The notes under the pieces: generated by a model | What the model was told of the DNA's origin: nothing | What the model saw: the letters and a program-made list of their open reading frames with translations, nothing else | Databases searched by the model: none | In this document: piece after piece, positions 1 to 64,000 of the stretch | How positions within the stretch are numbered: the first letter of the stretch is position 1 | Layout of the letters: every line of letters begins with the position of its first letter | Position numbers and translations under genes: made by a program | Source of the DNA: Fasciola hepatica | Taxonomy: Eukaryota > Platyhelminthes > Trematoda > Plagiorchiida > Fasciolidae | Assembly: GCA_948099385.1 (NCBI GenBank) | Contig: CANUEZ040000204.1 | Location: forward strand, 2,418,001-2,482,000 | Direction: 5' to 3' | Length of the DNA stretch: 64,000 bases

Positions 1-1724
1 CCCCTACAGAGAAGTCATCCATCATAGGAGTCGATCGGTGTGCGCGAAGCTGGTTCTTACCATTCAAATTTGAAGCGAGTTTGGGAAGGGTGCTATATCA
101 TGTAGTGTAGATGTTGAACAAAGCGTTGAGAGCCATCCCGGATAGCCTTGTGTTGTTAAGTTGTTCGATTCACAATGGTTCACCGGTTGTTGGAGTGCCC
201 GTGGTTGCTCGGTCGATGTGCACTGCTGATGAGTCGAGTCCCTTAAAGGATGAAACAGCTGTACAGTGCTTCCATCCATTTCAATGCTCAGTTGAGCGTT
301 CAAGCTGCATGTTCAATCATATTATACAAATCTAATCTAATCTAATCTAATCTCGTACTACTAATCAATTGCATGCATAGTAAGGAAGCTGTGTAGGTTG
401 TTCATTTGGGAATGCGTTGGTTGTACTTAGGCCCCTACAGAGAAGTCATCCATCATAGGAGTCGATCGGTGTGCGCGAAGCTGGTTCTTACCATTCAAAT
501 TTAAAGCGAGTTTGGGAACGGTGCCATATAATGTAGTGTAGATGTTGAACAAAACGTTGATAGCCATCCCGGATAGCCTTGTGTTGTTAAGTTGTTCGAT
601 TCACAATGGTTCACCGGTTGTTGGAGTGCCCGTGGTGGCTCGGTCGATGTGCACTGCTGATGAGTCGAGTCCCTTAGAGGATGAAACAGCTGTACAGTGC
701 TTCCGTGGATTTCAATGCTCAGTTGAGCGTTCAAGTTGCACGATCAATCATATTATACAAATCTAATCTAATCTAATCTAATCTCGTACTACTAATCAAT
801 TGCATGCATAGTAAGAAAGCTGTGTAGGTTGTTCATTTGGGAATGCGTTGGTTTTACTTAGGCCCCTACAGAGAAGTCATCCATCATACGAGTCGATCGG
901 TGTGCGCGAAGATGGTTCTTACCATTCAAATTTGAAGCGAGTTTGGGAAGGGTGCTATATCATGTAGTGTAGATGTTGAACAAAGCGTTTAGAGCCATCC
1001 CGGATAGCCTTGTGTTGTTAAGTTGTTCGATTCACAATGGTTCACCGGTTGTTGGAGTGCCCGTGGGGGCTCGGTCGATGTGCACTGCTGATGAGTCGAG
1101 TCCCTTAAAGGATGAAACAGCTGTACAGTGCTTCCATGGATTTCAATGCTCAGTTGAGCGTTCAAGCTGCATGATCAATCATATTATACAAATCTAATCT
1201 AATCTGATCTAATCTCGTACTACTAATCAATTGCATGCATAGTAAGGAAGCTGTGTAGGTTGTTCATTTGGGAATGCGTTGGTTGTACTTAGGCCCCTAC
1301 AGAGAAGTCATCCATCATAGGAGTCGATCGGTGTGCGCGAAGCTGGTTCTTACCATTCAAATTTAAAGCGAGTTTGGGAACGGTGCCATATAATGTAGTG
1401 TAGATGTTGAACAAAACGTTGATAGCCATCCCGGATAGTCTTGTATTGTTAAGTTGTTCGATTCACAATGGTTCACCGGTTGTTGGAGTGCCCGTGGTTG
1501 CTCGGTCGATGTGCACTGCTGATGAGTCGAGTCCCTTAGAGGATGAAACAGCTGTACAGTGCTTCCATGGATTTCAATGCTCAGTTGAGCGTTTAAGTTG
1601 CATGATCAATCATATTATACAAATCTAATCTAATCTAATCTAATCTCGTACTACTAATCAATTGCATGCATAGTAAGGAAGCTGTGAAGGTTGTTCATTT
1701 GGGAATGAGTTGGTTGTACTTAGG
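1..1724 (+). repeat. Dimer duplication (862 bp x 2), monomers 1-2 and 3-4
   Basis: 1-862 and 863-1724 have equal length. Monomers 1 and 3 share GAGTCCCTTAAAGG and a GAGCC before the first ATCCCGG; monomers 2 and 4 share GTGCCATATAATG and AAAACGTTG. Monomer 6 shares the CCATATAATG marker, so the family of this dimer extends further right. Confidence 0.7.
220..269 (+). ncRNA. Hammerhead ribozyme, first copy (loop II CUUAAA)
   Basis: Stem I GCACUG/CAGUGC, CUGAUGA at 226-232, GAAA at 252-255 and the GUA triplet ending at 263 are all intact. Loop II has A for G (CUUAAA), a change confined to the hexaloop of the GUCC/GGAU model. The flanking CCATCC shifts the mismatch in the proposed outer stem I. 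Confidence 0.9.
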
Positions 1725-2379
1725 CCCCTACAGAGAAGTCATCCATCATAGGAGTGGATCGGTGTGCGCGAAGCTGGTTCTGACCATTCAAATTTGAAGC
1801 GAGTTTGGGAACGGTGCTATATCATGTAGTGTAGATGTTGAACAAAGCGTTGATAGCCATCCCGGATAGCCTTGTGTTATTAAGTTGTTCGATTCACAAT
1901 GGTTCACCGGTTGTTGGAGTGCCCGTGGGGGCTCGGTCGATGTGCACTGCTGATGAGTCGAGTCCCTTCAAGGATGAAACAGCTGTACAGTGCTTCCATG
2001 GATTTCAATGCTCAGTTGAGCGTTCAAGCTGCATGATCAATCATATTATACAAATCTAATCTAATCTAATCTAATCTAATATCGTACTACTAATCAATTG
2101 CATGCATAGTAAGGAAGCTGTGTAGGTTGTTCATTTGGGAATGCGTTGGTTGTACTTAGGCCCCTACAGAGAAGTCATCCATCATAGGAGTCGATCGGTG
2201 TGCGCAAAGCTGGTTCTTACCATTCAAATTTAAAGCGAGTTTGGGAACGGTTCCATATAATGTAGTGTAGATGTTGAACAAAACGTTGATAGCCATCCCG
2301 GATAGCCTTGTGTTGTTAAGTTGTTCAATTCACAATGGTTCACCGGTTGTTGGAGTGCCCGTGGTGGCTCGGTCGATGT

Positions 2380-2429
2380 GCACTGCTGATGAGTCGAGTC
2401 CCTTAGAGGATGAAACAGCTGTTCAGTGC
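2380..2429 (+). ncRNA. Hammerhead variant with GUU cleavage triplet
   Basis: The base at the cleavage position (2423) is U, so the triplet is GUU rather than GUA. GUU still fits the NUH rule for hammerhead cleavage, usually with lower rate. Same change in the copies starting at 3672, 4108, 17469, 21778, 23071 and 23933. Monomer 6 also has GTTCAATTC in its B box. Confidence 0.85.
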
Positions 2430-3162
2430 TTCCATGGATTTCAATGCTCAGTTGAGCGTTCAAGTTGCATGATCAATCATATTATACAAATCTAATCTAA
2501 TCTAATCTAATCTCGTACTACTAATCAATTGCATGCATAGTAAGAAGCTGTGTAGGTTGTTCATTTGGGAATGCGTTGGTTGTACTTAGGCCCCTACAGA
2601 GAAGTCATCCATCATAGGAGTCGATCGGTGTGCGCGAAGATGGTTCTTACCATTCAAATTTGAAGCGAGTTTGGGAAGGGTGCTATATCATGTAGTGTAG
2701 ATGTTGAACAAAGCGTTGATAGCCATCCCGGATAGCCTTGTGTTGTTAAGTTGTTCGATTCACAATGGTTCACCGGTTGTTGGAGGGTTCGTGGTGGCTC
2801 GGTCGATGTGCACTGCTGATGAGTCGAGTCCCTTAGAGGATGAAACAGCTGTACAGTGCTTCCATGGATTTCAATGCTCAGTTGAGCGTTCAAGCTGCAT
2901 GATCAATCATATTATACAAATCTTATCTAATCTAATCTAATCTCGTACTACTAATCAATTGCATGCATAGTAAGGAAGCTGTGTAGGTTGTTCATTTGGG
3001 AATGCGTTGGTTGTACTTAGGCCCCTACAGAGAAGTCATCCATCATAGGAGTCGATCGGTGTGCGCGAAGCTGGTTCTTACCATTCAAATTTGAAGCGAG
3101 TTTGGGAAGGGTGCTATATCATGTAGTGTAGATGTTGAACAAAGCGTTGATAGCCATCCCGG

Positions 3163-3192
3163 ATCGCGTTGTGTTGGTAATTTGATCGATTC
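3163..3192 (+). promoter_or_regulatory. Altered B-box subfamily (first copy, monomer 8)
   Basis: The interval before the B box reads ATCGCGTTGTGTTGG and then TAATTTGATCGATTC, so the B-box core is GATCGATTC (3185 is A, not T). Other full copies lie upstream of the ribozymes at 3672 (further changed to GATAGATTC), 4544, 5406, 15745, 17469, 21778, 22209 and 23071. Partial forms precede 17038, 28684 and 56330. If the B box drives transcription, these units should be weaker promoters. They can still be transcribed by read-through from a neighbour. Confidence 0.6.
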
Positions 3193-4324
3193 ACAATGGT
3201 TCACCGGTTGTTGGAGTGCCCGTGGGGGCTCGGTCGATGTGCACTGCTGATGAGTCGAGTCCCTTAGAGGATGAAACAGCTGTACAGTGCTTCCATGGAT
3301 TTCAATGCTCAGTTGAGCGTTCAAGTTGCATGATCAATCATATTATACAAATCTAATCTAATCTGATCTAATCTCGTACTACTAATCAATTGCATGCATA
3401 GTAAGGAAGCTGTGTAGGTTGTGCATTTGGGAATGAGTTGGTTGTACTTAGGCCCCTACAGAGAAGTCATCCATCATAGGAGTCGATCGGTGTGCGCGAA
3501 GCTGGTTCTTACCATTCAAATTTAAAGCGAGTTTGGGAAGGGTGCTATATCATGTAGTGTAGATGTTGAACAAAGCGTTGATAGCCATCCCGGATCGCGT
3601 TGTGTTGGTAATTTGATAGATTCACAATGGTTCACCGGTTGTTGGAGTGCCCGTGGGGGCTCGGTCGATGTGCACTGCTGATGAGTCGAGTCCCTTAGAG
3701 GATGAAACAGCTGTTCAGTGCTTCCATGGATTTCAATGCTCAGTTGAGCGTTCAAGTTGCATGATCAATCATATTATACAAATCTAATCTAAGCTAATCT
3801 AATATAATCTCGTACTACTAATCAATTGCATGCATAGTAAGGAAGCTGTGTAGGTTGTTCATTTGGGAATGAGTTGGTTGTACTTAGGCCCCTACAGAGA
3901 AGTCATCCATCATAGGAGTCGATCGGTGTGCGCGAAGCTGGTTCTTACCATTCAAATTTAAAGCGAGTTTGGGAAGGGTGCTATATCATGTAGTGTAGAT
4001 GTTGAACAAAGCGTTGATAGCCATCCCGGATAGCCTTGTGTTGTTAAGTTGTTCGATTCACAATGGTTCACCGGTTGTTGGAGTGCCCGTGGTTGCTCGG
4101 TCGATGTGCACTGCTGATGAGTCGAGTCCCTTAGAGGATGAAACAGCTGTTCAGTGCTTCCATGGATTTCAATGCTCAGTTGAGCGTTCAAGCTGCATGA
4201 TCAATCATATTATACAAATCTAATCTAATCTAATCTTATCTAATCTCGTACTACTAATCAATTGCATGCATAGTAAGGAAGCTGTGTAGGTTGTTCATTT
4301 GGGAATGCGTTGGTTGTACTTAGG

Positions 4325-6048
4325 CCCCTACAGAGAAGTCATCCATCATAGGAGTCGATCGGTGTGCGCGAAGCTGGTTCTTACCATTCAAATTTGAAGC
4401 GAGTTTGGGAAGGGTGCTATATCATGTAGTGTATATGTTGAACAAAGCGTTGATAGCCATCCCGGATCGCGTTGTGTTGGTAATTTGATCGATTCACAAT
4501 GGTTCACCGGTTGTTGGAGTGCCCGTGGTTGCTCGGTCGATGTGCACTGCTGATGAGTCGAGTCCCTTAGAGGATGAAACAGCTGTACAGTGCTTCCATG
4601 GATTTCAATGCTCAGTTGAGCGTTCAAGTTGCATGATCAATCATATTATACAAATCTAATCTAATCTGATCTAATCTCGTACTACTAATCAATTGCATGC
4701 ATAGTAAGGAAGCTGTGTAGGTTGTGCATTTGGGAATGAGTTGGTTGTACTTAGGCCCCTACAGAGAAGTCATCCATCATAGGAGTCGATCGGTGTGCTC
4801 GAAGATGGTTCTTACCATTCAAATTTAAAGCGAGTTTGGGAAGGGTGCTATATCATGTAGTGTAGATGTTGAACAAAGCGTTGATAGCCATCCCGGATAG
4901 CCTTGTGTTGTTAAGTTGTTCGATTCACAATGGTTCACCGGTTGTTGGAGTGCCCGTGGGGGCTCGGTCGATGTGCACTGCTGATGAGTCGAGTCCCTTA
5001 GAGGATGAAACAGCTGTACAGTTCTTCCGTGGATTTCAATGCTCAGTTGAGCGTTCAAGCTGCATGATCAATCATATTATACAAATCTAATCTAATCTAA
5101 TCTAATCTCGTACTACTAATCAATTGCATGCATAGTAAGGAAGCTGTGTAGGTTGTTCATTTGGGAATGCGTTGGTTGTACTTAGGCCCCTACAGAGAAG
5201 TCATCCATCATAGGAGTCGATCGGTGTGCGCGAAGCTGGTTCTTACCATTCAAATTTGAAGCGAGTTTGGGAAGGGTGCTATATCATGTAGTGTAGATGT
5301 TGAACAAAGCGTTGATAGCCATCCCGGATCGCGTTGTGTTGGTAATTTGATCGATTCACAATGGTTCACCGGTTGTTGGAGTGCCCGTGGGGGCTCGGTC
5401 GATGTGCACTGCTGATGAGTCGAGTCCCTTAGAGGATGAAACAGCTGTACAGTGCTTCCATGGATTTCAATGCTCAGTTGAGCGTTCAAGTTGCATGATC
5501 AATCATATTATACAAATCTAATCTAATCTGATCTAATCTCGTACTACTAATCAATTGCATGCATAGTAAGGAAGCTGTGTAGGTTGTTCATTTGGGAATG
5601 AGTTGGTTGTACTTAGGCCCCTACAGAGAAGTCATCCATCATAGGAGTCGATCGGTGTGCGCGAAGATGGTTCTTACCATTCAAATTTAAAGCGAGTTTG
5701 GGAAGGGTGCTATATCATGTAGTGTAGATGTTGAACAAAGCGTTGATAGCCATCCCGGATAGCCTTGTGTTGTTAAGTTGTTCGATTCACAATGGTTCAC
5801 CGGTTGTTGGAGTGCCCGTGGGGGCTCGGTCGATGTGCACTGCTGATGAGTCGAGTCCCTTAGAGGATGAAACAGCTGTACAGTACTTCCGTGGATTTCA
5901 ATGCTCAGTTGAGCGTTCAAGCTGCATGATCAATCATATTATACAAATCTAATCTAATCTAATCTAATCTCGTACTACTAATCAATTGCATGCATAGTAA
6001 GGAAGCTGTGTAGGTTGTTCATTTGGGAATGCGTTGGTTGTACTTAGG
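4325..6048 (+). repeat. Dimer duplication (862 bp x 2), monomers 11-12 and 13-14
   Basis: 4325-5186 and 5187-6048 are the same length. Monomers 11 and 13 both carry GGATCGCGTTG with the altered B box; monomers 12 and 14 share CGAAGATGG, CTTCCGTGG and a damaged last stem I base (GTTC, GTAC). Confidence 0.75.
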
Positions 6049-9000
6049 CCCCTACAGAGAAGTCATCCATCATAGGAGTCGATCGGTGTGCGCGAAGCTG
6101 GTTCTTACCATTCAAATTTGAAGCGAGTTTGGGAAGGGTGCTATATCATGTAGTGTAGATGTTGAACAAAGCGTTGAGAGCCATCCCGGATAGCCTTGTG
6201 TTGTTAAGTTGTTCGATTCACAATGGTTCACCGGTTGTTGGAGTGCCCGTGGTTGCTCGGTCGATGTGCACTGCTGATGAGTCGAGTCCCTTAGAGGATG
6301 AAACAGCTGTACAGTGCTTCCATGGATTTCAATGCTCAGTTGAGCGTTCAAGCTGCATGATCAATCATATTATACAAATCTAATCTAATCTAATCTAATC
6401 TCGTACTACTAATCAATTGCATGCATAGTAAGGAAGCTGTGTAGGTTGTTCATTTGGGAATGAGTTGGTTGTACTTAGGCCCCTACAGAGAAGTCATCCA
6501 TCATAGGAGTCGATCGGTGTGCGCGAAGATGGTTCTTACCATTCAAATTTGAAGCGAGTTTGGGAAGGGTACTATATCATGTAGTGTAGATGTTGAACAA
6601 AGCGTTGATAGCCATCCCGGATAGCCTTGTGTTGTTAAGTTGTTCGATTCACAATGGTTCACCGGTTGTTGGAGTGCCCGTGGTTGCTCGGTCGATGTGC
6701 ACTGCTGATGAGTCGAGTCCCTTAGAGGATGAAACAGCTGTACAGTGCTTCCATGGATTTCAATGCTCAGTTGAGTGTTCAAGTTGCATGATCAATCATA
6801 TTATACAAATCTAATCTAATCTGATCTAATCTCGTACTACTAATCAATTGCATGCATAGTAAGGAAGCTGTGTAGGTTGTTCATTTGGGAATGCGTTGGT
6901 TGTACTTAGGCCCCTACAGAGAAGTCATCCATCATAGGAGTGGTTCGGTGTGCGCGAAGCTGGTTCTTACCATTCAAATTTAAAGCGAGTTTGGGAACGG
7001 TGCTATATCATGTAGTGTAGATGTTGAACAAAGCGTTGAGGGCCATCCCGGATAGCCTTGTGTTGTTAAGTTGTTCGATTCACAATGGTTCACCGGTTGT
7101 TGGAGTGCCCGTGGGGGCTCGGTCGATGTGCACTGCTGATGAGTCGAGTCCCTTAGAGGATGAAACAGCTGTACAGTGCTTCCATGCATTTCAATGCTCA
7201 GTTGAGCGTTCAAGTTGCATGATCAATCATATTATACAAATCTAATCTAATCTGATCTAATCTCGTACTACTAATCAATTGCATGCATAGTAAGGAAGCT
7301 GTGTAGGTTGTTCATTTGGGAATGCGTTGGTTGTACTTAGGCCCCTACAGAGAAGTCATCCATCGTAGGAGTCGATCGGTGTGCGCGAAGCTGGTTCTTA
7401 CCATTCAAATTTGAAGCGAGTTTGGGAAGGGTGCTATATCATGTAGTGTAGATGTTGAACAAAGCGTTGATAGCTATCCCGGATAGCCTTGTGTTGTTAA
7501 GTTGTTCGATTCACAATGGTTCACCGGTTGTTCGAGTGCCCGTGGGGGCTCGGTCGATGTGCACTGCTGATGAGTCGAGTCCCTTAGAGGATGAAACAGC
7601 TGTACAGTGCTTCCATGGATTTCCATGCTCAGTTGAGCGTTCAAGCTGCATGATCAATCATATTATACAAATCTAATCTAATCTGATCTAATCTCGTACT
7701 ACTAATCAATTGCATGCATAGTAAGGAAGCTGTGTAGGTTGTTCATTTGGGAATGAGTTGGTTGTACTTAGGCCCCTACAGAGAAATCATCCATCATAGG
7801 AGTCGATCGGTGTGCGCGAAGCTAGTTCTTACCATTCAAATTTAAAGCGAGTTTGGGAACGGTGCTATATCATGTAGTGTAGATGTTGAACAAAGCGTTT
7901 AGAGCCATCCCGGATAGCCTTGTGTTGTTAAGTTGTTCGATTCACAATGGTTCACCGGTTGTTGGAGTGCCCGTGGGGGCTCGGTCGATGTGCACTGCTG
8001 ATGAGTCGAAACCCTTAGAGGATGAAACAGCTGTACAGTGCTTCCATCCATTTCAATGCTCAGTTGAGCGTTCAAGCTGCATGATCAATCATATTATACA
8101 AATCTAATCTAATCTGATCTAATCTCGTACTACTAATCAATTGCATGCATAGTAAGGAAGCTGTGTAGATTGTTCATTTGTGAATGCGTTGGTTGTACTT
8201 AGGCCCCTACAGAGAAGTCATCCATCATAGGAGTCGATCGGTGTGCGCGAAGCTGGTTCTTACCATTCAAATTAGAAGCCAGTTTGGGAAGGGTGCTATA
8301 TCATGTAGTGTAGATGTTGAACAAAGCGTTGATAGCCATCCCGGATAGCCTTGTGTTGTTAAGTTGTTCGATTCACAATGGTTCACCGGTTGTTGGAGTG
8401 CCCGTGGTGGCTCGGTCGATGTGCACTGCTGATGAGTCGAGTCCCTTAGAGGATGAAACAGCTGTACAGTGCTTCCATGGATTTCAATGCTCAGTTGAGC
8501 GTTCAAGTTGCATGATCAATCATATTATACAAATCTAATCTAATCTAATCTAATCTCGTACTACTAATCAATTGCATGCATAGTAAGGAAGCTGTGTAGG
8601 TTGTTCATTTGGGAATGAGTTGGTTGTACTTAGGCCCCTACAGAGAAGTCATCCATCATAGGAGTCGATCGGTGTGCGCGAAGATGGTTCTTACCATTCA
8701 AATTTGAAGCGAGTTTGGGAAGGGTGCTATATCATGTAGTGTAGATGTTGAACAAAGCGTTGATAGCCATCCCGGATAGCCTTGTGTTGTTAAGTTGTTC
8801 GATTCACAATGGTTCACCGGTTGTTGGAGTGCCCGTGGTTGCTCGGTCGATGTGCACTGCTGATGAGTCGAGTCCCTTAGAGGATGAAACAGCTGTACAG
8901 TGCTTCCATGGATTTCAATGCTCAGTTGAGCGTTCAAGCTGCATGATCAATCATATTATACAAATCTAATCTAATCTAATCTAATCTCGTACTACTAATC

Positions 9001-13641: not shown

Positions 13642-16006
13642 TTCCATCCATTTCAATGCTCAGTTGAGCGTTCAAGCTGCATGATCAATCATATTATACA
13701 AATCTAATCTAATCTAATCTAATCTCGTACTACTAATCAATTGCATGCATAGTAAGGAAGCTGTGTAGGTTGTTCATTTGGGAATGAGTTGGTTGTACTT
13801 AGGCCCCTACAGAGAAATCATCCATCATAGGAGTGGATCGGTGTGCGCGAAGCTGGTTCTTACCATTCAAATTTAAAGCGAGTTTGGGAAGGGTGTTATA
13901 TCATGTAGTGTAGATGTTGAACAAAGCGTTGAGAGCCATCCCGGATAGCCTTGTTTTGTTAAGTTGTTCGATTCACAATGGTTCACCTGTTGTTGGAGTG
14001 CCCGTGGTTGCTCGGTCGATGTGCACTGCTGATGAGTCGAGTCCCTGGAGAATGAAACAGCTGTACAGTGCTTCCATGGATTTCAATGCTCAGTTGAGCG
14101 TTCAAGTTGCATGATCAATCATATTATACAAATCTAATCTAATCTGATCTAATCTCGTACTACTAATCAATTGCATGCATTGTAAGGAAGCTGTGTAGGT
14201 TGTTCATTTGGGAATGCGTTGGTTGTACTTAGGCCCCTACAGAGAAGTCATCCATCATAGGAGTCGATCGGTGTGCGCGAAGATGGTTCTTACCATTCAA
14301 ATTTAAAGCGAGTTTGGGAAGAGTGCTATATCATGTAGTGTAGATGTTGAACAAAGCGTTGATAGCCATCCCGGATAGCCTTGTGTTGTTAAGTTGTTCG
14401 ATTCACAATGGTTCACCGGTTGTTGGAGTGCCCGTGGGGGCTCGGTCGATGTGCACTGCTGATGAGTCGAGTCCTTAGAGGATGAAACAGCTGTACAGTG
14501 CTTCCATGGATTTCAATGCTCAGTTGAGCGTTCAAGTTGCATGATCAATCATATTATACAAATCTAATCTAATCTGATCTAATCTCGTACTACTAATCAA
14601 TTGCATGCATAGTAAGGAAGCTGTGTAGGTTGTTCATTTCGGAATGAGTTGGTTGTACTTAGGCCCCTACAGAGAAGTCATCCATCATAGGAGTGGTTCG
14701 GTGTGCGCAAAGCTGGTTCTTACCATTCAAATTTGAAACGAGTTTGGGAAGGGTGTTATATCATGTAGTGTAGATGTTGAACAAAGCGTTGATAGCCATC
14801 CCGGATAGCCTTGTTTTGTTAAGTTGTTCGATTCACAATGGTTCACCGGTTGTTGGAGTGCCCGTGGTTGCTCGGTCGATGTGCACTGCTGATGAGTCGA
14901 GTCCCTTAGAGGATGAAACAGCTGTACAGTGCTTCCATGGATTTCAATGCTCAGTTGAGCGTTCAAGTTGCATGATCAATCATATCATACAAATCTAATC
15001 TGAACTGATCTCGTACTACTAATCAATTGCATGCATAGTAAGGAAGCTGTTTAGGTTGTTCATTTGGGAATGCGTTGGTTGTACTTAGGCCCCTACAGAG
15101 AAGTCATCCATCATGGAAGTCGATCAGTGTGCGCGAAGCTGGTTCTTACCATTCAAATTTGAAGCGAGTTTGGGAAGGGTGCTATATCATGTAGTGTAGA
15201 TGTTGAACAAAGCGTTGATAGCCATCCCGGATAGCCTTGTGTTGTTAAGTTGTTCGATTCACAATGGTTCACCGGTTGTTGGAGTGCCCGTGGGGGCTCG
15301 GTCGATGTACACTGCTGATGAGTCGAGTCCCTTAGAGGATGAAACAGCTGTACAGTGCTTCCATGGATTTCAATGCTCAGTTGAGCGTTCAAGCTGCATG
15401 ATAAATCATATTATAAAAATCTAATCTAATCTAATCTAATCTAATCTCGTACTACTAATCAATTGCATGCATAGTAAGGAAGCTGTGTAGGTTGTTCATT
15501 TGGGAATGCGTTGGTTGTACTTAGGCCCCTACAGAGAAGTCATCCATCATAGGAGTCGATCGGTGTGCGCGAAGATGGTTCTTACCATTCAAATTTGAAG
15601 CGAGTTTGGGAAGGGTGCTATATCATGTAGTGTAGATGTTGAACAAAGCGTTGATAGCCATCCCGGATCGCGTTGTGTTGGTAATTTGATCGATTCACAA
15701 TGGTTCACCGGTTGTTGGAGTGCCCGTGGGGGCTCGGTCGATGTGCACTGCTGATGAGTCGAGTCCCTTAGAGGATGAAACAGCTGTACAGTGCTTCCAT
15801 GGATTTCAATGCTCAGTTGAGCGTTCAAGCTGCATGATCAATCATATTATACAAATCTAATCTAATCTAATCTAATCTCGTACTACTAATCAATTGCATG
15901 CATAGTAAGGAAGCTGTGTAGGTTGTTCATTTGGGAATGCGTTGGTTGTACTTAGGCCCCTACAGAGAAGTCATCCATCATACGAGTCGATCGGTGTGCG
16001 CGAAGC

Positions 16007-16018
16007 TGGTTCTTACCA
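16007..16018 (+). other. Small inverted repeat TGGT-TCTT-ACCA
   Basis: TGGT and ACCA are exact complements around a four-base TCTT loop, giving a potential 4-bp hairpin in the RNA. Most units keep it; a few carry TGTT, CCTA or GTTA changes in the loop. It resembles nothing catalytic and may only be part of a general RNA fold. Confidence 0.5.
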
Positions 16019-16049
16019 TTCAAATTTGAAGCGAGTTTGGGAAGGGTGC

Positions 16050-16069
16050 TATATCATGTAGTGTAGATG
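16050..16069 (+). promoter_or_regulatory. TATAT element followed by Pol III A-box-like motif
   Basis: TAGTGTAGATG at 16059-16069 fits the degenerate A-box consensus TRGYNNANNNG at every fixed position; a TATAT lies immediately upstream at 16050-16054. The A box starts 60 bp before the B-box core (16119), close to the spacing in tRNA genes and tRNA-derived SINEs. The consensus is loose, so the A box alone would be weak evidence; the paired B box makes it plausible. Most monomers keep the motif. Copies with TAGTTTAGATT (for example near 49291 and 50580) or TATTGTAGTTG (near 58808 and 59676) lose it, while TAGCGTAAATG near 63138 is diverged but still fits. Pol III use is inference. Confidence 0.45.
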
Positions 16070-16117
16070 TTGAACAAAGCGTTGATAGCCATCCCGGATA
16101 GCCTTGTGTTGTTAAGT

Positions 16118-16128
16118 TGTTCGATTCA
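16118..16128 (+). promoter_or_regulatory. Pol III B-box-like motif (GTTCGATTC core)
   Basis: TGTTCGATTCA matches the B-box consensus GGTTCGANTCC at 9 of 11 positions, with the inner GTTCGANTC exact; only the outermost G and C differ. It lies 48 bp before the ribozyme. The core is kept in most monomers, including the diverged right end. Three copies vary exactly at the position that is free (N) in the consensus: GTTCGAGTC near 9659 and 63637, and GTTCGAATC near 18702. A recurrent subfamily (monomers 8, 9, 11, 13, 37, 41, 51, 52, 54 and partly 40, 67, 131) has GATCGATTC or a further change instead. The Schistosoma Smalpha hammerhead satellite is also reported with internal Pol III boxes. The motif is seen; promoter function is inferred. 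Confidence 0.55.
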
Positions 16129-16146
16129 CAATGGTTCACCGGTTGT
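16128..16146 (+). other. Hairpin directly after the B box
   Basis: ACAA...TTGT encloses GGT-TC-ACC, so the RNA can form a two-part hairpin (outer 4 bp, inner 3 bp with a two-base loop) right downstream of the B box. Most units keep it. Changes such as CACCTG (monomers 26, 33, 101, 104, 105, 108, 117) or CAACGG (115, 118) alter one or two bases, mainly in unpaired or inner positions. No known function. Confidence 0.4.
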
Positions 16147-16166
16147 TGGAGTGCCCGTGGGGGCTC

Positions 16167-16236
16167 GGTCGATGTGCACTGCTGATGAGTCGAGTCCCTT
16201 AGAGGATGAAACAGCTGTACAGTGCTTCCATGGATT
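16167..16236 (+). other. Possible outer stem I and internal loop of the hammerhead
   Basis: Beyond the 6-bp inner stem I, GGUCGAU (16167-16173) can face AUGGAUU (16230-16236) with six pairs, two of them G.U, and one G.G mismatch. This would leave an internal loop GU / UUCC (16174-16175, 16226-16229). Natural type I hammerheads have such an internal loop in stem I, which contacts loop II and speeds cleavage. In monomers with CCATCCATT (for example 1, 19, 25, 29, 32, 40, 42, 48) the mismatch moves by one pair but the pair count stays the same. The pairing is hand-derived and moderate in strength. Confidence 0.45.
16176..16225 (+). ncRNA. Type I hammerhead ribozyme (representative copy)
   Basis: Self-cleaving RNA. 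Stem I is GCACUG (16176-16181) with CAGUGC (16220-16225), a perfect 6-bp complement. The first core strand CUGAUGA is 16182-16188, the stem-loop II region 16189-16207, and the second core strand GAAA 16208-16211. A15.1 (16211) pairs with U16.1 (16218), C15.2 with G16.2; the whole strand ACAGCUGU (16211-16218) is self-complementary, leaving no room for a normal loop III. Cleavage is expected after A17 (16219) in the triplet GUA. All invariant core bases (C3, U4, G5, A6, G8, A9, G12, A13, A14) are present. Stem II is unusual: either GUC/GAU closes a 13-nt loop straight after the core, or GUCC (16194-16197) pairs with GGAU (16204-16207) around the loop CUUAGA, leaving five extra bases GUCGA at the core. 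Open stem I and minimal stem III place it in the metazoan satellite/retrozyme class, which often acts as a dimer. Confidence 0.93.
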
Positions 16237-16264
16237 TCAATGCTCAGTTGAGCGTTCAAGCTGC

Positions 16265-16276: not shown

Positions 16277-16284
16277 ATTATACA

Positions 16285-16309
16285 AATCTAATCTAATCTA
16301 ATCTAATCT
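16285..16309 (+). repeat. (AATCT)5 pentamer microsatellite within the monomer
   Basis: Five perfect AATCT copies run up to TCGTACTAC. In other monomers the tract has four to six copies, often with one AATCT changed to GATCT or with inserts such as AAGCT or TATAAT. Its copy-number steps account for most departures from 431 bp (for example 436 bp between the ribozymes of monomers 5 and 6). A shortened form, TCTAATCTGAACTGATCTCG, occurs near 14994, 18441, 44348, 44776 and 46500. It is not a known telomere repeat. Confidence 0.9.
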
Positions 16310-16321
16310 CGTACTACTAAT

Positions 16322-56379: not shown

Positions 56380-58705
56380 TTCCATGGATTTCAATGCTCA
56401 GTTGAGCGTTCAAGCTGCATGATCAACCATATTATACAATTCTAATCTAAGCTAATCTAATCTAATCTCGTACTACTAATCAATTGCATGCATAGTAAGG
56501 AAGCTGTGTAGGTTGTTCATTTGGGAATGCGTTGGTTGTACTTAGGCCCCTACAGAGAAGTCATCCATCATAGGAGTCGATCGGTGTGCGCGAAGCTGGT
56601 TCTTACCATTCAAATTTGAAGCGAGTTTGGGAACGGTGCTATATCATGTAGTGTAGATGTTGAACAAAGAGTTGATAGCCATCCCGGATAGCATTGTGTT
56701 GTTAAGTTGTTCGATTCGCAATGGTTCACCGGTTGTTGGAGTGCCCGTGGTTGCTCGGTTGATGTGCACTGCTGATGAGTCGAGTCCCTTAGAGGATGAA
56801 ACAGCTGTACAGTGCTTCCATGGATTTCAATGCTCAGTTGAGCGTTCAAGCTGCATGATCAACCATATTATACAATTCTAATCTAAGCTAATCTAATCTA
56901 ATCTCGTACTACTAATCAATTGCATGCATAGTAAGGAAGCTGTGTAGGTTGTTCATTTGGGAATGCGTTGGTTGTACTTAGGCCCCTACAGAGAAGTCAT
57001 CCATCATAGGAGTCGATCGGTGTGCGCGAAGCTGGTTCTTACCATTCAAATTTAAAGCGAGTTTGGGAACGGTGCTATATCCTGTAGTTTAGATGTTGAA
57101 CAAAGAGTTGAGAGCCATCCCGGATAGCCTTGTGTTGTTAAATTGTTCGATTCACAATGGTTCACCGGTTGTTGGAGTGCCCGTGGGGGCTCGGTCGATG
57201 TGCACTGCTGATGAGTCGAATCCCTTAGAGAATGAAACAGCTGTACAGTGCTTCCATGGATTTCAATGCTCAGTTGAGCGTTCAAGCTGCATGATCAATC
57301 ATGTTATACAAATCTAATCTAATCTAATCTAATCTCGTACTACTTATCAATTGCATGCATAGTAAGGAAGCTGTGTAGGTTGTTCATTTTGAATGCGTTG
57401 GTTGTACTGAGGCCCCTACAGAGAAGTCATCCATCATAGGAGTCGATCGGTGTGCGCGAAGCTGGTTCTTACCATTCAAATTTAAAGCGAGTTTGGGAAC
57501 GGTGCTATATCATGGTGTGTAGATATTGAACAAAGCGTTGATAGCCATCCCGGATAGCCTTGTGTTGTTAAGTTGTTCGATTCACAATGGTTCACCGGTT
57601 GTTGGAGTGCCCGTGGTTGCTCGGTCGATGTGCACTGCTGATGAGTCGAGTCCCTTAGAGGATGAAACAGCTGTACAGTGCTTCCATGGATTTCAATGCT
57701 CAGTTGAGCGTTCAAGCTGCATGATCAATCATATTATACAAATCTAATCTAATCTAATCTAATCTCGTACTACTAATCAATTGCATGCATAGTAAGGAAG
57801 CTGTGTAGGTTGTTCATTTGGGAATGCGTTGGTTGTACTTAGGCCCCTACAGAGAAGTCATCCATCATAGGAGTCGATCGGTGTGCGCGACGCTGGTTCT
57901 TACCATTCAAATTAAAAGCGAGTTTGGGAACGGTGCTATATCATGTAGTGTAGATGTGGAAGAAATCGTTGATAGCAATCACGGATAGCCTTGTGTTGTT
58001 AAGTTGTTCGATTCACAATGGTTCACCGGTTGTTGGAGTGCCCATGGGGGCTCGGTCGATGTGCACTGCTGATGAGTCGAGTCCCTTAGAGGATGAAACA
58101 GCTGTACAGTGCTTCCATGGATTTCAATGCTCAGTTGAGCGTTCAAGCTGCATGATCAATCATATTATACAAATCTAATCTAATCTGATCTAATCTCGTA
58201 CTACTAATCAATTGCATGCATAGTAAGGAAGCTGTGTAGGTTGTTCATTTGGGAATGCGTTGGTTGTACTTAGGCCCCTACAGAGAAGTCATCCATCATA
58301 AGAGTCGATCGGTGTTCGCGAAGCTGGTTCTTACCATTCAAATTTAAAGCGAGTTTGGGAAGGGTGCTATATCATGTAGTGTAGATTTTGAACAAAGCGT
58401 TGAGAGCCATCCCGGATAGCCTTGTGTTGTTAAGTTGTTCGATTCACAATGGTTCACCGATTGTTGGAGTGCCCGTGGGGGCTCGGTCGATGTGCACTGC
58501 TGATGAGTCGAGACCCTTAGAGGATGAAACAGCTGTACAGTGCTTCCATGGATTTCAATGCTCAGTTGAGCGTTCAAGCTGCATGATCAATCATGTTATA
58601 CAAATCTAATCTAATCTGATCTAATCTCGTACTACTAATCAATTGCATGCATAGTAAGGAAGCTGTGTAGGTTGTTCATTTGGGAATGCGTTGGTTGTAC
58701 TTAGG

Positions 58706-60434
58706 CCCCTACAGAGAAGTCATCCATCATAGGAGTCGATCGGTGTGCGCGAAGCTGGTTCTTACCATTCAAATTTAAAGCGAGTTTGGGAACGGTGCTA
58801 TATCATGTATTGTAGTTGTTGAACAAAGCGTTGATAGCCATCCCGGATAGCCTTGTGTTGTTAAGTTGTTCGATTCACAATGGTTCACCGGTTGTTGGAG
58901 TGCCCGTGGTTGCTCGGTCGATGTGCACTGCTGATGAGTCGAATCCCTTAGAGGATGAAACAGCTGTACAGTGCTCCCATGTATTTCAATGCTCAGTTGA
59001 GCGTTCAAGCTGCATGATCAATCATATTATACAAATCTAATCTAATCTAATCTAATCTAATCTCGTACTACTAATCAATTGCATGCATAGTATAGAAGCT
59101 GTGTAGGTTGTGCATTTGGGAATGCGTTGGTTGTACTTAGGCCCCTACAGAGAAGTCATCCATCATAGGAGTCGATCGGTGTGCGCGAAGCTGGTTCCTA
59201 CCATTCAAATTTAAAGCGAGTTTGGGAACGGTGCTATATCATGTAGTGTAGATGTTGAACAAAGCGTTGATAGCCATCCCGGATAGCCTTGTGTTGTTAA
59301 GTTGTTCGATTCACAATGGTTCACCGGTTGTTGGAGTGCCCGTGGTTGCTCGGTCGATGTGCACTGCTGATGAGTCGAGTCCCTTAGATGATGAAACAGC
59401 TGTATAGTGCTTCCATGGATTTCAATGCTCAGTTGAGCGTTCGAGCTGCATGATCAATCATATTATGCAAATCTAATCTAATCTAATCTAATCTCGTACT
59501 ACTAATCAATTGCATGCATAGTAAGGAAGCTGTGTAGGTTGTTCATTTGGGAATGCGTTGGTTGTACTTAGGCCCCTACAGAGAAGTCATCCATCATAGG
59601 AGTCGATCGGTGTGCGCGAAGCTGGTTCTTACCATTCAAATTTAAAGCGAGTTTGGGAACGGTGCTATATCATGTATTGTAGTTGTTGAACAAAGCGTTG
59701 ATAGCCATCCCGGATAGCCTTGTGTTGTTAAGTTGTTCGATTCACAATGGTTCACCGGTTGTTGGAGTGCCCGTGGTTGCTCGGTCGATGTGCACTGCTG
59801 ATGAGTCGAATCCCTTAGAGGATGAAACAGCTGTACAGTGCTCCCATGGATTTCAATGCTCAGTTGAGCGTTCAAGCTGCATGATCAATCATATTATACA
59901 AATCTAATCTAATCTAATCTAATCTCGTACTACTAATCAATTGCATGCATTGTAAGGAAGCTGTGTAGGTTGTGCATTTGGGAATGCGTTGGTTGTACTT
60001 AGGCCCCTACAGAGAAGTCATCCATCATAGGAGTCGATCGGTGTGCGCGAAGCTGGTTCCTACCATTCAAATTTAAAGCGAGTTTGGGAACGGTGCTATA
60101 TCATGTAGTGTAGATGTTGAACAAAGCGTTGATAGCCATCCCGGATAGCCTTGTGTTGTTAAGTTGTTCGATTCACAATGGTTCACCGGTTGTTGGAGTG
60201 CCCGTGGTTGCTCGGTCGATGTGCACTGCTGATGAGTCGAGTCCCTTAGATGATGAAACAGCTGTATAGTGCTTCCATGGATTTCAATGCTCAGTTGAGC
60301 GTTCGAGCTGCATGATCAATCATATTATGCAAATCTAATCTAATCTAATCTAATCTCGTACTACTAATCAATTGCATGCATAGTAAGGAAGCTGTGTAGG
60401 TTGTTCATTTGGGAATGCGTTGGTTGTACTTAGG
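58706..60434 (+). repeat. Dimer duplication (867 + 862 bp), monomers 137-138 and 139-140
   Basis: Monomers 137 and 139 share GTATTGTAGTTGTTG and GTGCTCCCATG; monomers 138 and 140 share GGTTCCTACC, TTAGATGATG, CTGTATAGTG and ATTATGCAAATC. The 5-bp difference is one pentamer. All these markers are rare elsewhere, so this is a recent duplication. Confidence 0.88.
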
Positions 60435-61515
60435 CCCCTACAGAGAAGTCATCCATCATAGGAGTCGATCGGTGTGCGCGAAGCTGGTTCTTACCATTCA
60501 AATTTAAAGCGAGTTTGGGAAGGGTGCTATATCATGTAGTGTAGATGTTGAACAAAGCGTTGATAGCCATCCCGGATAGCCTTGTGTTGTTAAATTGTTC
60601 GATTCACAATGGTTCACCGGTTGTTGGAGTGCCCATGGTTGCTCGGTCGATGTGCACTGCTGATGAGTCGAGTCCCTTAGAGGATGAAACAGCTGTACAG
60701 TGCTTCCATGGATTTCAATGCTCAGTTGAGCGTTCAAGCTGCATGATCAATCATATTATACAAATCTAATCTAATCTGATCTAATCTCGTACTACTAATC
60801 AATTGCATGCATAGTAAGGAAGCTGTGTAGGTTGTTCATTTGGGAATGCGTTGGTTGTACTTAGGCCCCTACAGAGAAGTCATCCATCATAGGAGTCGAT
60901 CGGTGTGCGCGAAGCTGGTTCTTACCATTCAAATTTAAAGCGAGTTTGGGAACGGTGCTATATCATGTAGTGCAGATGTATAAGAAATCGTTGACAGCTA
61001 TCGCGGATAGCCTTGTGTTGTTAAGTTGTTCGATTCACAATGGTTCACCGGTTGTTGGAGTGCCCGTGGGGGCTCGGTCGATGTGCACTGCTGATGAGTC
61101 GAATCCCTTAGATGATGAAACAGCTGTACAGTGCTCCCATGGATTTCAATGCTCAGTTGAGCGTTCAAGCTGCATGATCAATCATATTATACAAATCTAA
61201 TCTAATCTAATCTAATCTCGTACTACTAATCAATTGCATGCATAGTAAGGAAGCTGTGTAGTTTGTTCATTTGGGAATGCGTTGGTTGTACTTAGGCCCC
61301 TACAGAGAAGTCATCCATCATAGGAGTCGATCGGTGTGCGCGAAGCTGGTTCTTACCATTCAAATTTGAAGCGAGTTTGGGAACGGTGCTATATCATGTA
61401 TTGTAGATGTGGAAGAAATCGTTGATAGCCATCCCGGATAGCCTTGTGTTGTTAAGTTGTTCGATTCACAATGGTTCACCGGTTGTTGGAGTGCCCGTGG
61501 TTGCTCGGTCGATGT

Positions 61516-61565
61516 GCACTGCTGCTGAGTCGAATCCCTTAGATGATGAAACAGCTGTGCAGTGC
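61516..61565 (+). ncRNA. Hammerhead with A6 and A17 mutations, inactive
   Basis: The first core strand is CUGCUGA (A6 at 61525 is C) and the cleavage triplet is GUG (61559 is G), which breaks the NUH rule. Both changes are individually damaging. Stem I and GAAA remain. Confidence 0.88.
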
Positions 61566-62163
61566 TTCCATGGATTTCAATGCTCAGTTGAGCGTTCAAG
61601 CTGCATGATCAATCATATTATACAAATCTAATCTAAGCTAATCTAATCTAATCTCGTACTACTAATCAATTGCATGCATAGTAAGGAAGCTGTGTAGGTT
61701 GTTCATTTGTGAATGCGTTGGTTGTACTTAGGCCCCTACAGAGAAGTCATCCATCATAGGAGTCGATCGGTGTGCGCGAAGCTGGTTCTTACCATTCAAA
61801 TTTAAAGCGAGTTTGGGAACGGTGCTATATCGTGTAGTGTAGAACTGGAAGAAATCGTTGATAGCAATCACGGATAGCCTTGTGTTGTTAAATTGTTCGA
61901 TTCACAATGGTTCACCGGTTGTTGGAGTGCCCGTGGGGGCTCGGTCGATGTGCACTGCTGATGAGTCGAATCCCTTAGATGATGAAACAGCTGTACAGTT
62001 CTTCCATGGATTTCAATGCTCAGTTGAGCGTTCAAGCTGCATGATCAATCATACTATACAAATCTAATCTAATCTAATCTAATCTCGTACTACTTATCAA
62101 TTGCATGCGTAGTAAGGAAGCTGTGTAGGTTGTTCATTTGGGAATGCGTTTGTTGTACTTAGG

Positions 62164-63902
62164 CCCCTACAGAGAAGTCATCCATCATAGGAGTCGATCG
62201 GTGTGCGCGAAGCTGGTTCTTACCATTCAAATTTGAAGCGAGTTTGGGAACGGTTCTATATCATTTAGCGTAAATAAGGAAGAAATCGTTGAGAGCCATC
62301 CCGGATAGCCTTGTGTTGTTAAGTTGTTCGATTCACAATGGTTCACCGGTTGTTGGAGTGCCCGTGGTTGCTCGGTCGATGTGCACTGCTGATGAGTCGA
62401 GTCCCTTAGAGGATGAAACAGCTGTACAGTGCTTCCATGGATTTCAATGCTCAGTTGACTGTTCGAGCTGCATGATCAATCATATTATACAAATCTAATC
62501 TAAGCTAATCTAATCTAATCTCGTACTACTATACAATTGCATGCATAGTAAGGAAGCTGTGTAGGTTGTTCATTTGGGAATGCGTTGGTTGTACTTAGGC
62601 CCCTACAGAGAAGGCATCCATCATAGGAGTCGATCGGTGTGCGCGAAGCTGGTTCTTACCATTCAAATTTAAAGCGAGTTTGGGAACGGTGCTATATCAT
62701 GTAGCTTATATTCTGAAGAAAGCGATGTTAGCAATCACGGATAGCATTGTGTTGTTAAGTTGTTCGATTCACAATGGTTCACCGGTTGTTGGAGTGCCCG
62801 TGGTTGCTCGGTCGATGTGCACTGCTGATGAGTCGAATCCCTTAGAGGATGAAACAGCTGTACAGTGCTTCCATGGATTTCAATGCTCAGTTGAGCGTTC
62901 AAGCTGCATGATCAATCATATTATACAAATCTAATCTAATCTAATCTAATCTAATCTCGTACTACTAATCAATTGCATGCATAGTAAGGAAGCTGTGTAG
63001 GTTGTTCATTTGGGAATGCGTTGGTTGTACTTAGGCCCCTACAGAGAAGTCATCCATCATAGGAGTCGATCGGTGTGCGCGAAGCTGGTTCTTACCATTC
63101 AAATTTGAAGCGAGTTTGGGAACGGTTCTATATCATTTAGCGTAAATGTGGAAGAAATCGTTGATAGCAATCACTGATAGCCTTGTGTTGTTAAGTTGTT
63201 CGATTCACAATGGTTCACCGGTTGTTGGAGTGCCCGTGGTTGCTCGGTCGATGTGCACTGCTGATGAGTCGAATCCCTTAGAGGATGAAACAGCTGTACA
63301 GTGCTTCCATGGATTTCAATGCTCAGTTGAGCGTTCAAGCTGCATGATCAATCATATTATACAAATCTAATCTAATCTAATCTAATCTAATCTCGTACTA
63401 CTAATCAATTGCATGCATAGTAAGGAAGCTGTGTAGGTTGTTCAATTGGGAATGCGTTGGTTGTACTTAGGCCCCTACAGAGAAGTCATCCATCATAGGA
63501 GTCGATCGGTGTGCGCGAAGCTGGTTCTTACCATTCAAATTTAAAGCGAGTTTGGGAAGGGTGCTACATCATGTAGCTTATATTCTGAAGAAAGCGATGT
63601 TAGAAATCACGGATAGCCTTGTGTTGTTAAGTTGTTCGAGTCACAATGGTTCACCGATTGTTGGAGTGCCCGTGGTTGCTCGGTCGATGTGCACTGCTGA
63701 TGAGTCGAATCCCTTAGAGGATGAAACAGCTGTACAGTGCTTCCATGGATTTCAATGCTCAGTTGAGCGTTCAAGCTGCATGATCAATCATGTTATACAA
63801 ATCTAATCTAATCTAATCTAATCTCGTACTGCTAAGCAATTGCATGCATAGTAAGGAAGCTGCGTAGGTTGTTCATTTGTGAATGCGTTGGTTGTACTTA
63901 GG
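62164..63902 (+). repeat. Dimer duplication (872 + 867 bp), monomers 145-146 and 147-148
   Basis: Monomers 145 and 147 share GGTTCTATATCATTTAGCGTAAAT; to keep within short motifs, the key part is TTTAGCGTAAAT. Monomers 146 and 148 share TAGCTTATATTCTGAAG and AAAGCGATGTTAG. These are the most diverged A-to-B intervals in the window, copied as a pair. Confidence 0.85.
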
Positions 63903-64000
63903 CCCCTACAGAGAAGTCATCCATCATAGGAGTCGATCGGTGTGCGCGAAGCTGGTTCTTACCATTCAAATTTAAGGCGAGTTTGGGAACGGTGCTATAT
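63903..64000 (+). repeat. Truncated last monomer (unit 149)
   Basis: Begins with CCCCTACAGAG and matches the first 98 bases of other units, with AAGGCGAG where others have AAAGCGAG. The window ends in GCTATAT, just before the expected A box, so it contains no ribozyme. Confidence 0.95.

What the first reader, a model, noticed from the sequence alone, without database searches (positions are those of the whole stretch)
1..64000. 148 tandem type I hammerhead ribozymes in one satellite array
Every monomer contains stem I GCACUG/CAGUGC (exact complements 38 nt apart), CUGAUGA, GAAA and a GUA (rarely GUU) cleavage triplet at the correct relative positions. The chance of all these elements lining up by accident is negligible, and the motif is better conserved than the surrounding sequence. 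This makes the array a potential factory of self-cut 431-nt RNAs. Known parallels are Schistosoma Smalpha, newt Satellite 2, Dolichopoda pDo500 and metazoan retrozymes; the 431-bp sequence itself is not one I recognise.
Basis: partly seen in the sequence, partly recalled or inferred. Interest (0 to 1): 0.95.

Follow-up and report, generated by a model that had tools for sequence, protein, structure and literature searches.

The report
Fluke satellite derived from ribozyme retroelement
The window is one stretch of a very large satellite DNA, most likely from a liver fluke, whose units carry a hammerhead ribozyme inherited from a tRNA-like mobile element; the mobile element itself inserts in a way that looks like an RNA circle being copied round and round from both sides of a chromosome break.

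Summary
Rfam RF00163 aligns but scores at most 27.0 bits, cut-off 34. All 148 carry a 5-nt insertion in stem II; conservation is not significantly above the rest of the unit.

The host assembly (1.5 Gb) explains the array: 25,353 matches to the same ribozyme without the insertion; those fetched belong to a dispersed ~400-bp element whose full units carry a tRNA-Val-like Pol III promoter. The 431-bp satellite has lost that promoter; an interleaved 423-bp sister satellite has a dead ribozyme. So the array is probably DNA-amplified, its ribozyme weak or dispensable.

Most interesting: 35 of 60 scored insertions are head-to-head, some multi-unit; 30/35 pair one short with one long outer end, and 11/35 show target duplications of 10 bp or more (null 0.05%). 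This fits two-ended reverse transcription of a ribozyme-made RNA circle; circles and enzyme were not shown.

Small RNAs across the cut were published as Fasciola "miRNAs".

The parts
1..64000 (+). Uninterrupted head-to-tail 431-bp satellite array (148.2 copies; = G000:C204:2418001-2482000)
   Evidence: TRF; genome placement; monomer lengths 431 x94, 436 x29, 430 x11, 426 x6, 432 x4, 437 x1 of 145 whole monomers
15789..16219 (+). Representative monomer, cut site to cut site (the predicted self-cleaved 431-nt RNA)
16176..16225 (+). Type I hammerhead motif of the representative copy (RF00163 24.5 bits, model 1-45/45, cut-off 34)
16182..16188 (+). CUGAUGA core; exact in 142 of 148 copies
16189..16193 (+). 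GUCGA: the 5-nt insertion in the 5' strand of stem II (148 of 148; two read UUCGA), absent from the dispersed copies shown and from the 423-bp satellite; makes the stem II register ambiguous (GUC..GAU or GUCC..GGAU, both with G.U at 10.1-11.1)
16208..16211 (+). GAAA core; 147 of 148 copies
16211..16218 (+). Stem III ACAGCUGU, self-complementary (146 of 148): 2-3 pairs as a monomer, 8 pairs if two ribozymes pair
16219..16220 (+). Predicted cleavage between A16219 and C16220
   Evidence: motif position; inference, not assayed
16098..16116 (+). Damaged A box of the ancestral tRNA-like promoter (2-nt insertion relative to TAGCCTTGTGGTTAAG)
   Evidence: alignment
16141..16155 (+). Damaged B box (GGTTGTTGGAGTGCC where the dispersed element has GGTTCGAGTCCCC); 0 exact GGTTCGANTCC in the window
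16285..16309 (+). (AATCT)n run of variable length, which fits the 426/436 monomer-length variants; lies in the 3'-end zone of the dispersed element

Best explanation
The array is satellite DNA that grew from units of a dispersed, non-coding retroelement: a ~400-bp SINE-like retrozyme made of a tRNA-Val(CAC)-like Pol III promoter followed directly by a type I hammerhead ribozyme. The living element makes tandem transcripts that its ribozyme cuts to unit length (weakly as monomers, better as pairs, because stem III is an 8-nt palindrome); the units are closed into circles by a host ligase, and a reverse transcriptase copies the circle repeatedly into chromosome breaks, often from both ends of a staggered break of about 12 nt. 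Satellite copies then expanded at the DNA level to very large blocks. In the 431-bp satellite of the window the promoter is broken and stem II has a 5-nt insertion; in an interleaved 423-bp satellite the ribozyme is dead. In the window the ribozyme is therefore an inherited, possibly slow, probably dispensable passenger. Shown: homology, copy numbers, promoter damage, dead sister satellite, insertion anatomy in the sampled loci. Inferred: transcription, cleavage, circles, the enzyme used, the direction dispersed to satellite.
For: RF00163 in the genome: 38 matches listed, 37 over the cut-off, on many contigs (74 of 288,504 candidates scored). 25,353 genome-wide matches to the 45-nt ribozyme at <=3 mismatches, 0 in the reversed control; only about the first 100 places are listed, and these are singles, inverted pairs and short arrays. 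The 400-nt unit is 87.5% identical to the satellite over 400 aligned positions. ARAGORN calls tRNA-Val(CAC) in units of L046 (18), L047 (11) and L048 (5), none in L010, L012, L016, whose copies are truncated or degraded, none in the window; Rfam tRNA 33.1 bits, cut-off 29, in 5 of 5 full L048 units; one L024 copy 23.8, below. 37 exact B boxes for 39 ribozymes in L046-L048; 0 in the window. Of 38 450-bp probes on C196, C203, C204 and C206, 17 are the 431-bp and 17 the 423-bp satellite, 4 neither; a motif pattern allowing G or C at two core sites matches 13 of the 17 431-bp probes, all with intact core plus the insertion, and 15 of the 17 423-bp probes, all CTCATGA and CAAAC. Insertions: see full report. 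S. mansoni has the same combination of hammerhead satellites and full-length dispersed copies.
Against: No RNA was tested; cleavage is not shown either way. 141 of 148 satellite copies keep the core, and the 431-bp satellite kept it in the 13 probes where the pattern matched: homogenisation or weak selection could both explain this. The 5-nt insertion might be tolerated. Published Fasciola small RNAs cover the motif on both strands, so some copies are transcribed. The direction dispersed to satellite rests on the intact promoter and canonical ribozyme in dispersed copies, not on a dated tree. Only C196, C203, C204 and C206 were probed.
Confidence: 0.8

Rival explanations
1. One reading: the satellite is an active factory whose transcripts self-cleave into 431-nt monomers in vivo.
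For: Core intact in 141 of 148 copies and stem III palindrome in 146; stem II of two pairs and U.U at 10.1-11.1 are tolerated in natural hammerheads (PMC3088659 passages); axolotl ribozymes with weak helices cleave 6-22% in an hour as monomers and better as dimers (PMC7229834); two dimer strands cofold 9.1 kcal/mol better than two monomers; Fasciola small RNAs over the cut.
Against: Sub-threshold Rfam score, 5-nt insertion in 148 of 148, no significantly better conservation than the rest, Pol III boxes lost, sister satellite with dead ribozyme; in the dimer cofold stem II is replaced by another hairpin. With 60 nt or more of natural upstream sequence stem I is predicted in under 2% of the ensemble, but shuffled flanks mostly do the same, so this last point is neutral.
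Confidence: 0.15
2. Tandem and head-to-head dispersed arrays arose by reverse transcription of long linear multimeric transcripts, or by DNA amplification after insertion, not from RNA circles.
For: A linear multimer also gives tandem units. L021 and L022 share one centre junction, 99.5% identical over 648 bp with no homology reported in the flanks and different target duplications, so a composite can be copied as a unit. In L047 the two arms differ by 2.5 positions, hardly less than from L046 (2.6-3.2), and units within an arm by about 3.
Against: In L046 units are nearly identical within and between arms (0.2-1.1 and 0.64 differences, 2.6-6.3 to the other arrays); consensus private alleles are shared by both arms (position 12 C in L046 only, 186 C in L047 only, among five arrays); one target duplication brackets all 19 ribozymes of L046; 34 of 35 centre junctions differ.
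Confidence: 0.35
3. Chance: a hammerhead-like word in an ordinary satellite.
For: Below the Rfam cut-off in the window.
Against: 3 of 60,000 shuffles; homologous copies over the cut-off.
Confidence: 0.01

Closest known systems
Schistosoma mansoni W-elements W25.2 / W26.2 / W27.2 / W36.2 (Smalpha)
   Same: Trematode satellite arrays of 332-428-bp monomers, 41-161 kb, each family with a type I hammerhead; very short stem III; dispersed partial and full-length copies on autosomes; three tested copies (variants of W25.2 and W36.2) cleave in vitro, two mutated ones do not (PMC8490949 sections 6 and 11 and passages). That hammerhead repeats can resemble tRNA is from a passage of PMC5993326.
   Different: Here a 5-nt stem II insertion, an interleaved sister satellite with a dead ribozyme, and an insertion anatomy. 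No S. mansoni sequence was held, so homology was not tested.
Metazoan non-LTR retrozymes (coral, mussel, axolotl)
   Same: Type I hammerhead in 150-450-bp tandem repeats, G+C below 50%, target duplications, when present, longer than 4 bp, no LTR (PMC7229834: results parts 1-2 of 3 and discussion read).
   Different: A review says metazoan retrozymes seem to have no promoter and no motif that reveals their partner retrotransposon (PMC7761336 section 9); here the dispersed element has Pol III boxes and a characteristic two-ended insertion.
Newt/axolotl Satellite 2 hammerheads
   Same: Weak stem III with palindromic tetraloop, better as dimers; axolotl HHR_Amex2 also has a mispair at the base of stem II.
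   Different: Unit 330-350 bp; no homology tested.
Dolichopoda pDo500 satellite
   Same: Hammerhead in every ~500-bp satellite unit; cleavage shown in vitro (PMC2837043 abstract and passages).
   Different: There the hammerhead region is reported as significantly more conserved, with compensatory changes (passages of PMC2808323 disagree on conservation); here neither is seen.
Penelope-like elements
   Same: Minimal type I hammerheads that may self-cleave as dimers (PMC7761336 passages); inverted terminal copies with a one-sided ~34-bp extension (recalled, from no call).
   Different: No reverse transcriptase was found here; the search for it did not complete.

Membership tests
Type I hammerhead (Rfam RF00163) | Score at or above the gathering cut-off, window copies | tested here: not met
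   0 hits; best 27.0 of 34 bits
Type I hammerhead (Rfam RF00163) | Score at or above the cut-off, relatives elsewhere in the genome | tested here: met
   37 of 38 listed matches; 11 of the 12 fetched are homologous to the satellite. The UUCC variant in L048 scores 28.8, below the cut-off
Type I hammerhead (Rfam RF00163) | CUGANGA, GAAA, NUH, three stems, stem I open | tested here: met
   133 of 148 with all elements; stem II register ambiguous
Type I hammerhead (Rfam RF00163) | Self-cleavage | not testable with these tools
   needs RNA
Satellite DNA | Long homogeneous head-to-tail arrays | tested here: met
Metazoan non-LTR retrozyme (dispersed element) | Type I hammerhead in 150-450-bp tandem units, G+C under 50% | tested here: met
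   400-nt unit, arrays of up to 19 ribozymes; G+C 48.0% over unit plus 50 nt
Metazoan non-LTR retrozyme (dispersed element) | No LTR, primer-binding site or polypurine tract | not tested
   no search was run for these
Metazoan non-LTR retrozyme (dispersed element) | Target-site duplication | tested here: met
   >=10 bp in 13 of 60 chains, null 0.05%; not seen in most of the others
Metazoan non-LTR retrozyme (dispersed element) | Expressed as circular RNA | not testable with these tools
   no RNA reads held
tRNA-derived SINE | tRNA-like head with A and B boxes | tested here: met
   full dispersed units; not met in the window
Mobilised by a Penelope-like element | PLE reverse transcriptase / GIY-YIG in the genome; shared 3' end | not tested
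   PF01541 search sent ten times, never answered

The most novel reading that the evidence does not exclude
Retrozymes of this fluke integrate by two-ended, rolling-circle, target-primed reverse transcription: the self-cleaving ribozyme makes a circle, one circle sequence is copied round and round from both sides of a staggered break of about 12 nt, and the two cDNAs are joined at their 5' ends, leaving divergent tandem arrays with one short and one ~30-nt longer outer end. The short/long asymmetry would be the fingerprint of the partner enzyme, most likely a Penelope-like element. The large satellites are then the DNA-level afterlife of such arrays.
Probability: 0.4. Interest if true: 0.85.

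Novelty: new variant of a known kind. Interest (0 to 1): 0.66.

Why it matters
How hammerhead-bearing repeats spread in animals is open: the model calls for an RNA circle copied into tandem cDNA, but the review section read here says no motif points to the partner retrotransposon and no promoter is apparent. This genome supplies thousands of copies, and the 60 scored here show a sharp, countable anatomy (bracketing target duplications, divergent arms, a two-valued 3' end) and, in full units, Pol III boxes, so the model becomes testable by counting. It also offers a natural series in one genome, canonical ribozyme, ribozyme with an insertion, dead ribozyme, that separates what the mobile element needs from what a satellite needs. 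Last, it suggests that three published Fasciola "miRNAs" are ribozyme fragments.

Tried and rejected
Chance motif: rejected. Special masking of the ribozyme by a complementary G-rich stretch upstream: predicted, but random flanks mask it as much (stem I probability in the circle 0.006, median of 120 shuffles 0.000; local 0.016, median of 400 shuffles 0.005), so rejected as evidence. Higher-order repeats: neighbour identity is nearly flat with distance (0.963 at lag 1, 0.961 overall), one identical pair, one short block at lag 4; weak local clustering of variants exists (11 of 40 sites with z>2 at lag 1). Cytosine-methylation decay as origin of the G.U pair: no excess C>T at CpG, slight excess G>A. 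Covariation in stem I: none. Homologues in phage, plasmid, viral and prokaryote collections: none for the queries sent; three viral-contig hits to a 16-mer were taken as chance and not followed. Box A/B in the satellite: an apparent GTTCGATTC at unit position 331 is not the real B box, which lies further on and is broken. Organism by COX1: not completed. Whole-genome count of the insertion-bearing ribozyme: not completed (11 calls), so the satellite's copy number is unknown beyond the 685 candidates (40 scored). Penelope reverse transcriptase: not completed (10 calls).

Rows dropped: for the insertion counts 38 of the 58 loci L008-L065 were used (L009 carries another hammerhead; 19 were overlaps of, or judged by eye to be duplicates of, a kept locus), plus all 20 of L106-L125. 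They gave 41 + 20 chains (L008 gave two, L050 three). L049 was removed afterwards because its flanks are one inverted repeat, leaving 60 chains. Odd chains (L008, L050, L057, L109) were kept; L021 and L022 are not independent. The places come from the lists, i.e. best-scoring or first-listed copies near the canonical ribozyme; they are not random, and copies without a ribozyme are missed. The second sample is 20 of the 21 single places left in the list, chosen before they were read but after the short/long pattern was seen in the first sample. Target-duplication search let the boundary slide by up to 8 nt on either side, so lengths are upper bounds; the null used the same rule.


Full report
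WHAT IS IN THE WINDOW. The 64 kb are one head-to-tail array with period 431 (148.2 copies, 96% matches). All 148 motif copies lie on the + strand. Whole monomers (145) average 97.9% identity to their consensus (93.0-99.8%); the commonest other lengths, 436 and 430, then 426, partly fit gain or loss of one AATCT unit. Pairwise identity is nearly flat with distance along the array, with one identical pair and no higher-order repeat beyond one short block; linkage between variable sites falls from r2 0.37 within 5 nt to 0.03 at 20-50 nt, though some sites still cluster between neighbours.

THE RIBOZYME MOTIF. In the representative copy: GCACUG | CUGAUGA | GUCGA GUCC CUUAGA GGAU | GAAA | CAGCUGUA | CAGUGC, cut after 16219. 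It is more than chance: full descriptor 126 sites on +, 0 on -, and 3 of 60,000 shuffled monomers. It is not perfect: exact reader pattern in 122 of 148, all elements in 133, core or triplet broken in 7. Rfam places type I hammerhead over the full model in 93 listed copies, at 19.3-27.0 bits, cut-off 34 (none at the cut-off). The visible departure is stem II: eleven instead of six nucleotides in the loop and a non-standard fourth pair. Stem III is the palindrome ACAGCUGU in 146 of 148, of the kind that makes axolotl ribozymes work better as pairs (PMC7229834 results); two 68-nt strands cofold 9.1 kcal/mol better than two monomers, but the predicted dimer does not form the proper stem II.

CONSTRAINT. 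Functional sites are 99.2% conserved, the rest 97.8%; 53 of 431 circular shifts of the same site pattern do as well, and twelve core sites are matched by 20% of random sets. No compensatory change in stem I. Within this array there is thus no significant evidence for selection on the ribozyme; the array's homogeneity makes the test weak.

THE GENOME. After ten unanswered calls, one search placed the window at G000:C204:2418001-2482000 in an assembly of 1.4998 Gb and 656 contigs, with further copies on C194, C196, C197, C203, C205, C206 and C229 (685 candidates, 40 scored). A family search listed 38 RF00163 matches, 37 over the cut-off, up to 40 bits, on many contigs (74 of 288,504 candidates scored; none in 14 control genomes). 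A 45-nt canonical version of the motif has 25,353 matches with up to 3 mismatches; the reversed control has none; about the first 100 places are listed. Of the 12 loci fetched, 11 are homologous to the satellite unit; these share stem III (11 of 11), mostly stem I (9 of 11) and lack the 5-nt insertion.

THE DISPERSED ELEMENT. Ten adjacent units in L046 give a 400-nt consensus, 87.5% identical to the satellite over 400 aligned positions. Positions 280-352 fold as tRNA-Val(CAC) by ARAGORN and end nine nucleotides before the ribozyme's stem I; Rfam tRNA scores 33.1 (cut-off 29) in 5 of 5 full units of L048, and 23.8 in one L024 copy. The A box TAGCCTTGTGG and B box GGTTCGAGTCC are present: 37 exact B boxes for 39 ribozymes in L046-L048. 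In the satellite the A box has 2 extra nucleotides and the B box is rewritten; no exact B box in the window (2 with one mismatch), no tRNA call. The units of L046 and L048 carry UUCC..GGAU, i.e. U.U at the base of stem II, like axolotl HHR_Amex2 and other natural hammerheads; in L048 this variant scores 28.8 bits, also below the Rfam cut-off.

TWO INTERLEAVED SATELLITES. I probed C196, C203, C204 and C206 with 38 stretches of 450 bp (20, 18). Seventeen are the 431-bp satellite, seventeen a second satellite of period 423, about 75% identical to the dispersed unit, four neither. A motif pattern allowing G or C at two core sites matched 15 of the 17 423-bp probes, all CTCATGA and CAAAC: two catalytic guanosines (G5, G12; numbering recalled) are C. 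It matched 13 of the 17 431-bp probes, all with the intact core and the stem II insertion (once with point changes); the six unmatched probes were not resolved. Both orientations and both satellites alternate on C203 and C204. A satellite of this family therefore does not need a working ribozyme.

HOW THE DISPERSED ELEMENT INSERTS. I scored 60 chains automatically (40 from the first set after dropping L049, 20 from the second). Thirty-five are head-to-head: a minus arm on the left, a plus arm on the right, 5' ends meeting in the middle. Outer 3' ends fall in two clusters, positions 41-73 and 84-106 of the unit, apart from five odd ends (148, 398, 400 three times); with the border at 80, 30 of 35 pairs have one of each, 17.4 expected (binomial P 9e-6), left and right symmetric 15 to 15; 4 are long-long, 1 short-short. 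In the second sample alone it is 9 of 11. Target duplications of 10 bp or more bracket 13 of 60 chains (11 of 35 head-to-head) against 0.05% when flanks of different loci are paired; 8 of the 13 are 12 bp, lengths being upper bounds (letters of eight loci shown). In 42 of 60 none of 6 bp or more was found. Where bracketed, a head-to-head composite is one integration event.

ARRAYS. L046 holds 19 ribozymes (17 full units) in two diverging arms, bracketed by one duplication. Its units differ by 0.2-1.1 positions within and 0.64 between arms, against 2.6-6.3 to the other arrays; five units of L048 are identical (the 400-nt consensus was built from L046). L047 is less clear: about 3 differences within an arm, 2.5 between its arms, 2.6-3.2 to L046. 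Consensus private alleles are shared by both arms: position 12 C only in L046, 186 C only in L047, among five arrays. One template sequence thus probably filled both arms. A circle copied repeatedly from both ends explains this simply; a linear multimer, or later DNA amplification, is not excluded. The 35 centre junctions are 34 different ones, 23 with 1-5 nt of overlap (no null was run); the exception, L021/L022, is one composite at two places with different duplications, which the simple model does not explain.

WHICH ENZYME. The genome search for GIY-YIG did not complete. So the partner is a lead, not a result.

ORGANISM AND TRANSCRIPTS. Of 25 mature sequences in Table 1 of a Fasciola hepatica / F. 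gigantica small-RNA paper (PMC3534066, main text read in three parts), exactly three match the window at up to 3 mismatches, and all three lie across the predicted cut: "miR-novel-share-02" (sense, -14 to +6, exact in 125 copies), "Fhe-miRNA-novel-01" (sense, -11 to +9 plus one unmatched T) and "miR-novel-share-03c" (antisense, -11 to +11 plus one unmatched T). That, a genome size near Fasciola's 1.3 Gb (PMC4404566 abstract passage) and the schistosome parallels make a fasciolid fluke likely (about 0.8, my estimate). Caveats: the paper mapped reads to the S. japonicum genome; by inspection the sequences fit the dispersed unit too; reads across the cut show uncut or re-ligated RNA, not cleavage. 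Sixteen hammerhead-like small-RNA elements are reported from S. haematobium (PMC5993326 passages).

KNOWN OR NEW. Hammerhead satellites in flukes are known: S. mansoni W25.2, W26.2, W27.2, W36.2, arrays of 41-161 kb, monomers 332-428 bp, with functional copies. Of the held papers, none listed for "431 bp" with satellite terms holds that phrase (10 listed, 30 of 229); sequence words gave none, four papers with one 13-15-letter word, of which only PMC3534066 was opened, and that paper alone for longer words; a Fasciola plus hammerhead search listed 20 of 38. The satellite is a new member with a twist (stem II insertion, dead sister). The insertion anatomy and Pol III promoter of its parent element are not described for retrozymes in the sections I read; no search was run on that point, all ten searches being used.

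Noticed in passing
16206-16230 and homologous copies; PMC3534066 Table 1: Three published Fasciola 'novel miRNAs' are pieces of this hammerhead across its cut site, on both strands; two end in one unmatched T.
   Followed up: partly
L075-L078, L083, L084, L088, L089 and others on C196, C203, C204, C206: A 423-bp sister satellite with two catalytic guanosines replaced (CTCATGA, CAAAC), interleaved with the 431-bp satellite in both orientations.
   Followed up: partly
L017:1073-1144 and 1373-1445 (+); L009 near 1506: Other hammerhead types in the same genome: two sub-threshold HH9-like matches next to a dispersed copy and a different type I sequence.
   Followed up: no
L049 (G000:C10:3085000-3088800): The 40-bp flanks of this head-to-head array are perfect reverse complements of each other: a real palindrome or an assembly fold-back.
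   Followed up: no
L021 and L022 (C53, 7 kb apart): Same composite with the same centre junction, 99.5% identical over 648 bp, in different flanks with different target duplications.
   Followed up: partly
L057 left arm; L109: Arms that end at unit position 398-400, i.e. at the ribozyme cut, as if a cut linear RNA had been copied from its very end; could be an alignment effect.
   Followed up: no
window, all monomers: Linkage between variable sites decays within about 20-50 nt, which seems short for gene conversion; assembly polishing could contribute.
   Followed up: no
1-64000: Constant strand asymmetry, GC skew about +0.16 and AT skew about -0.10 on +.
   Followed up: no
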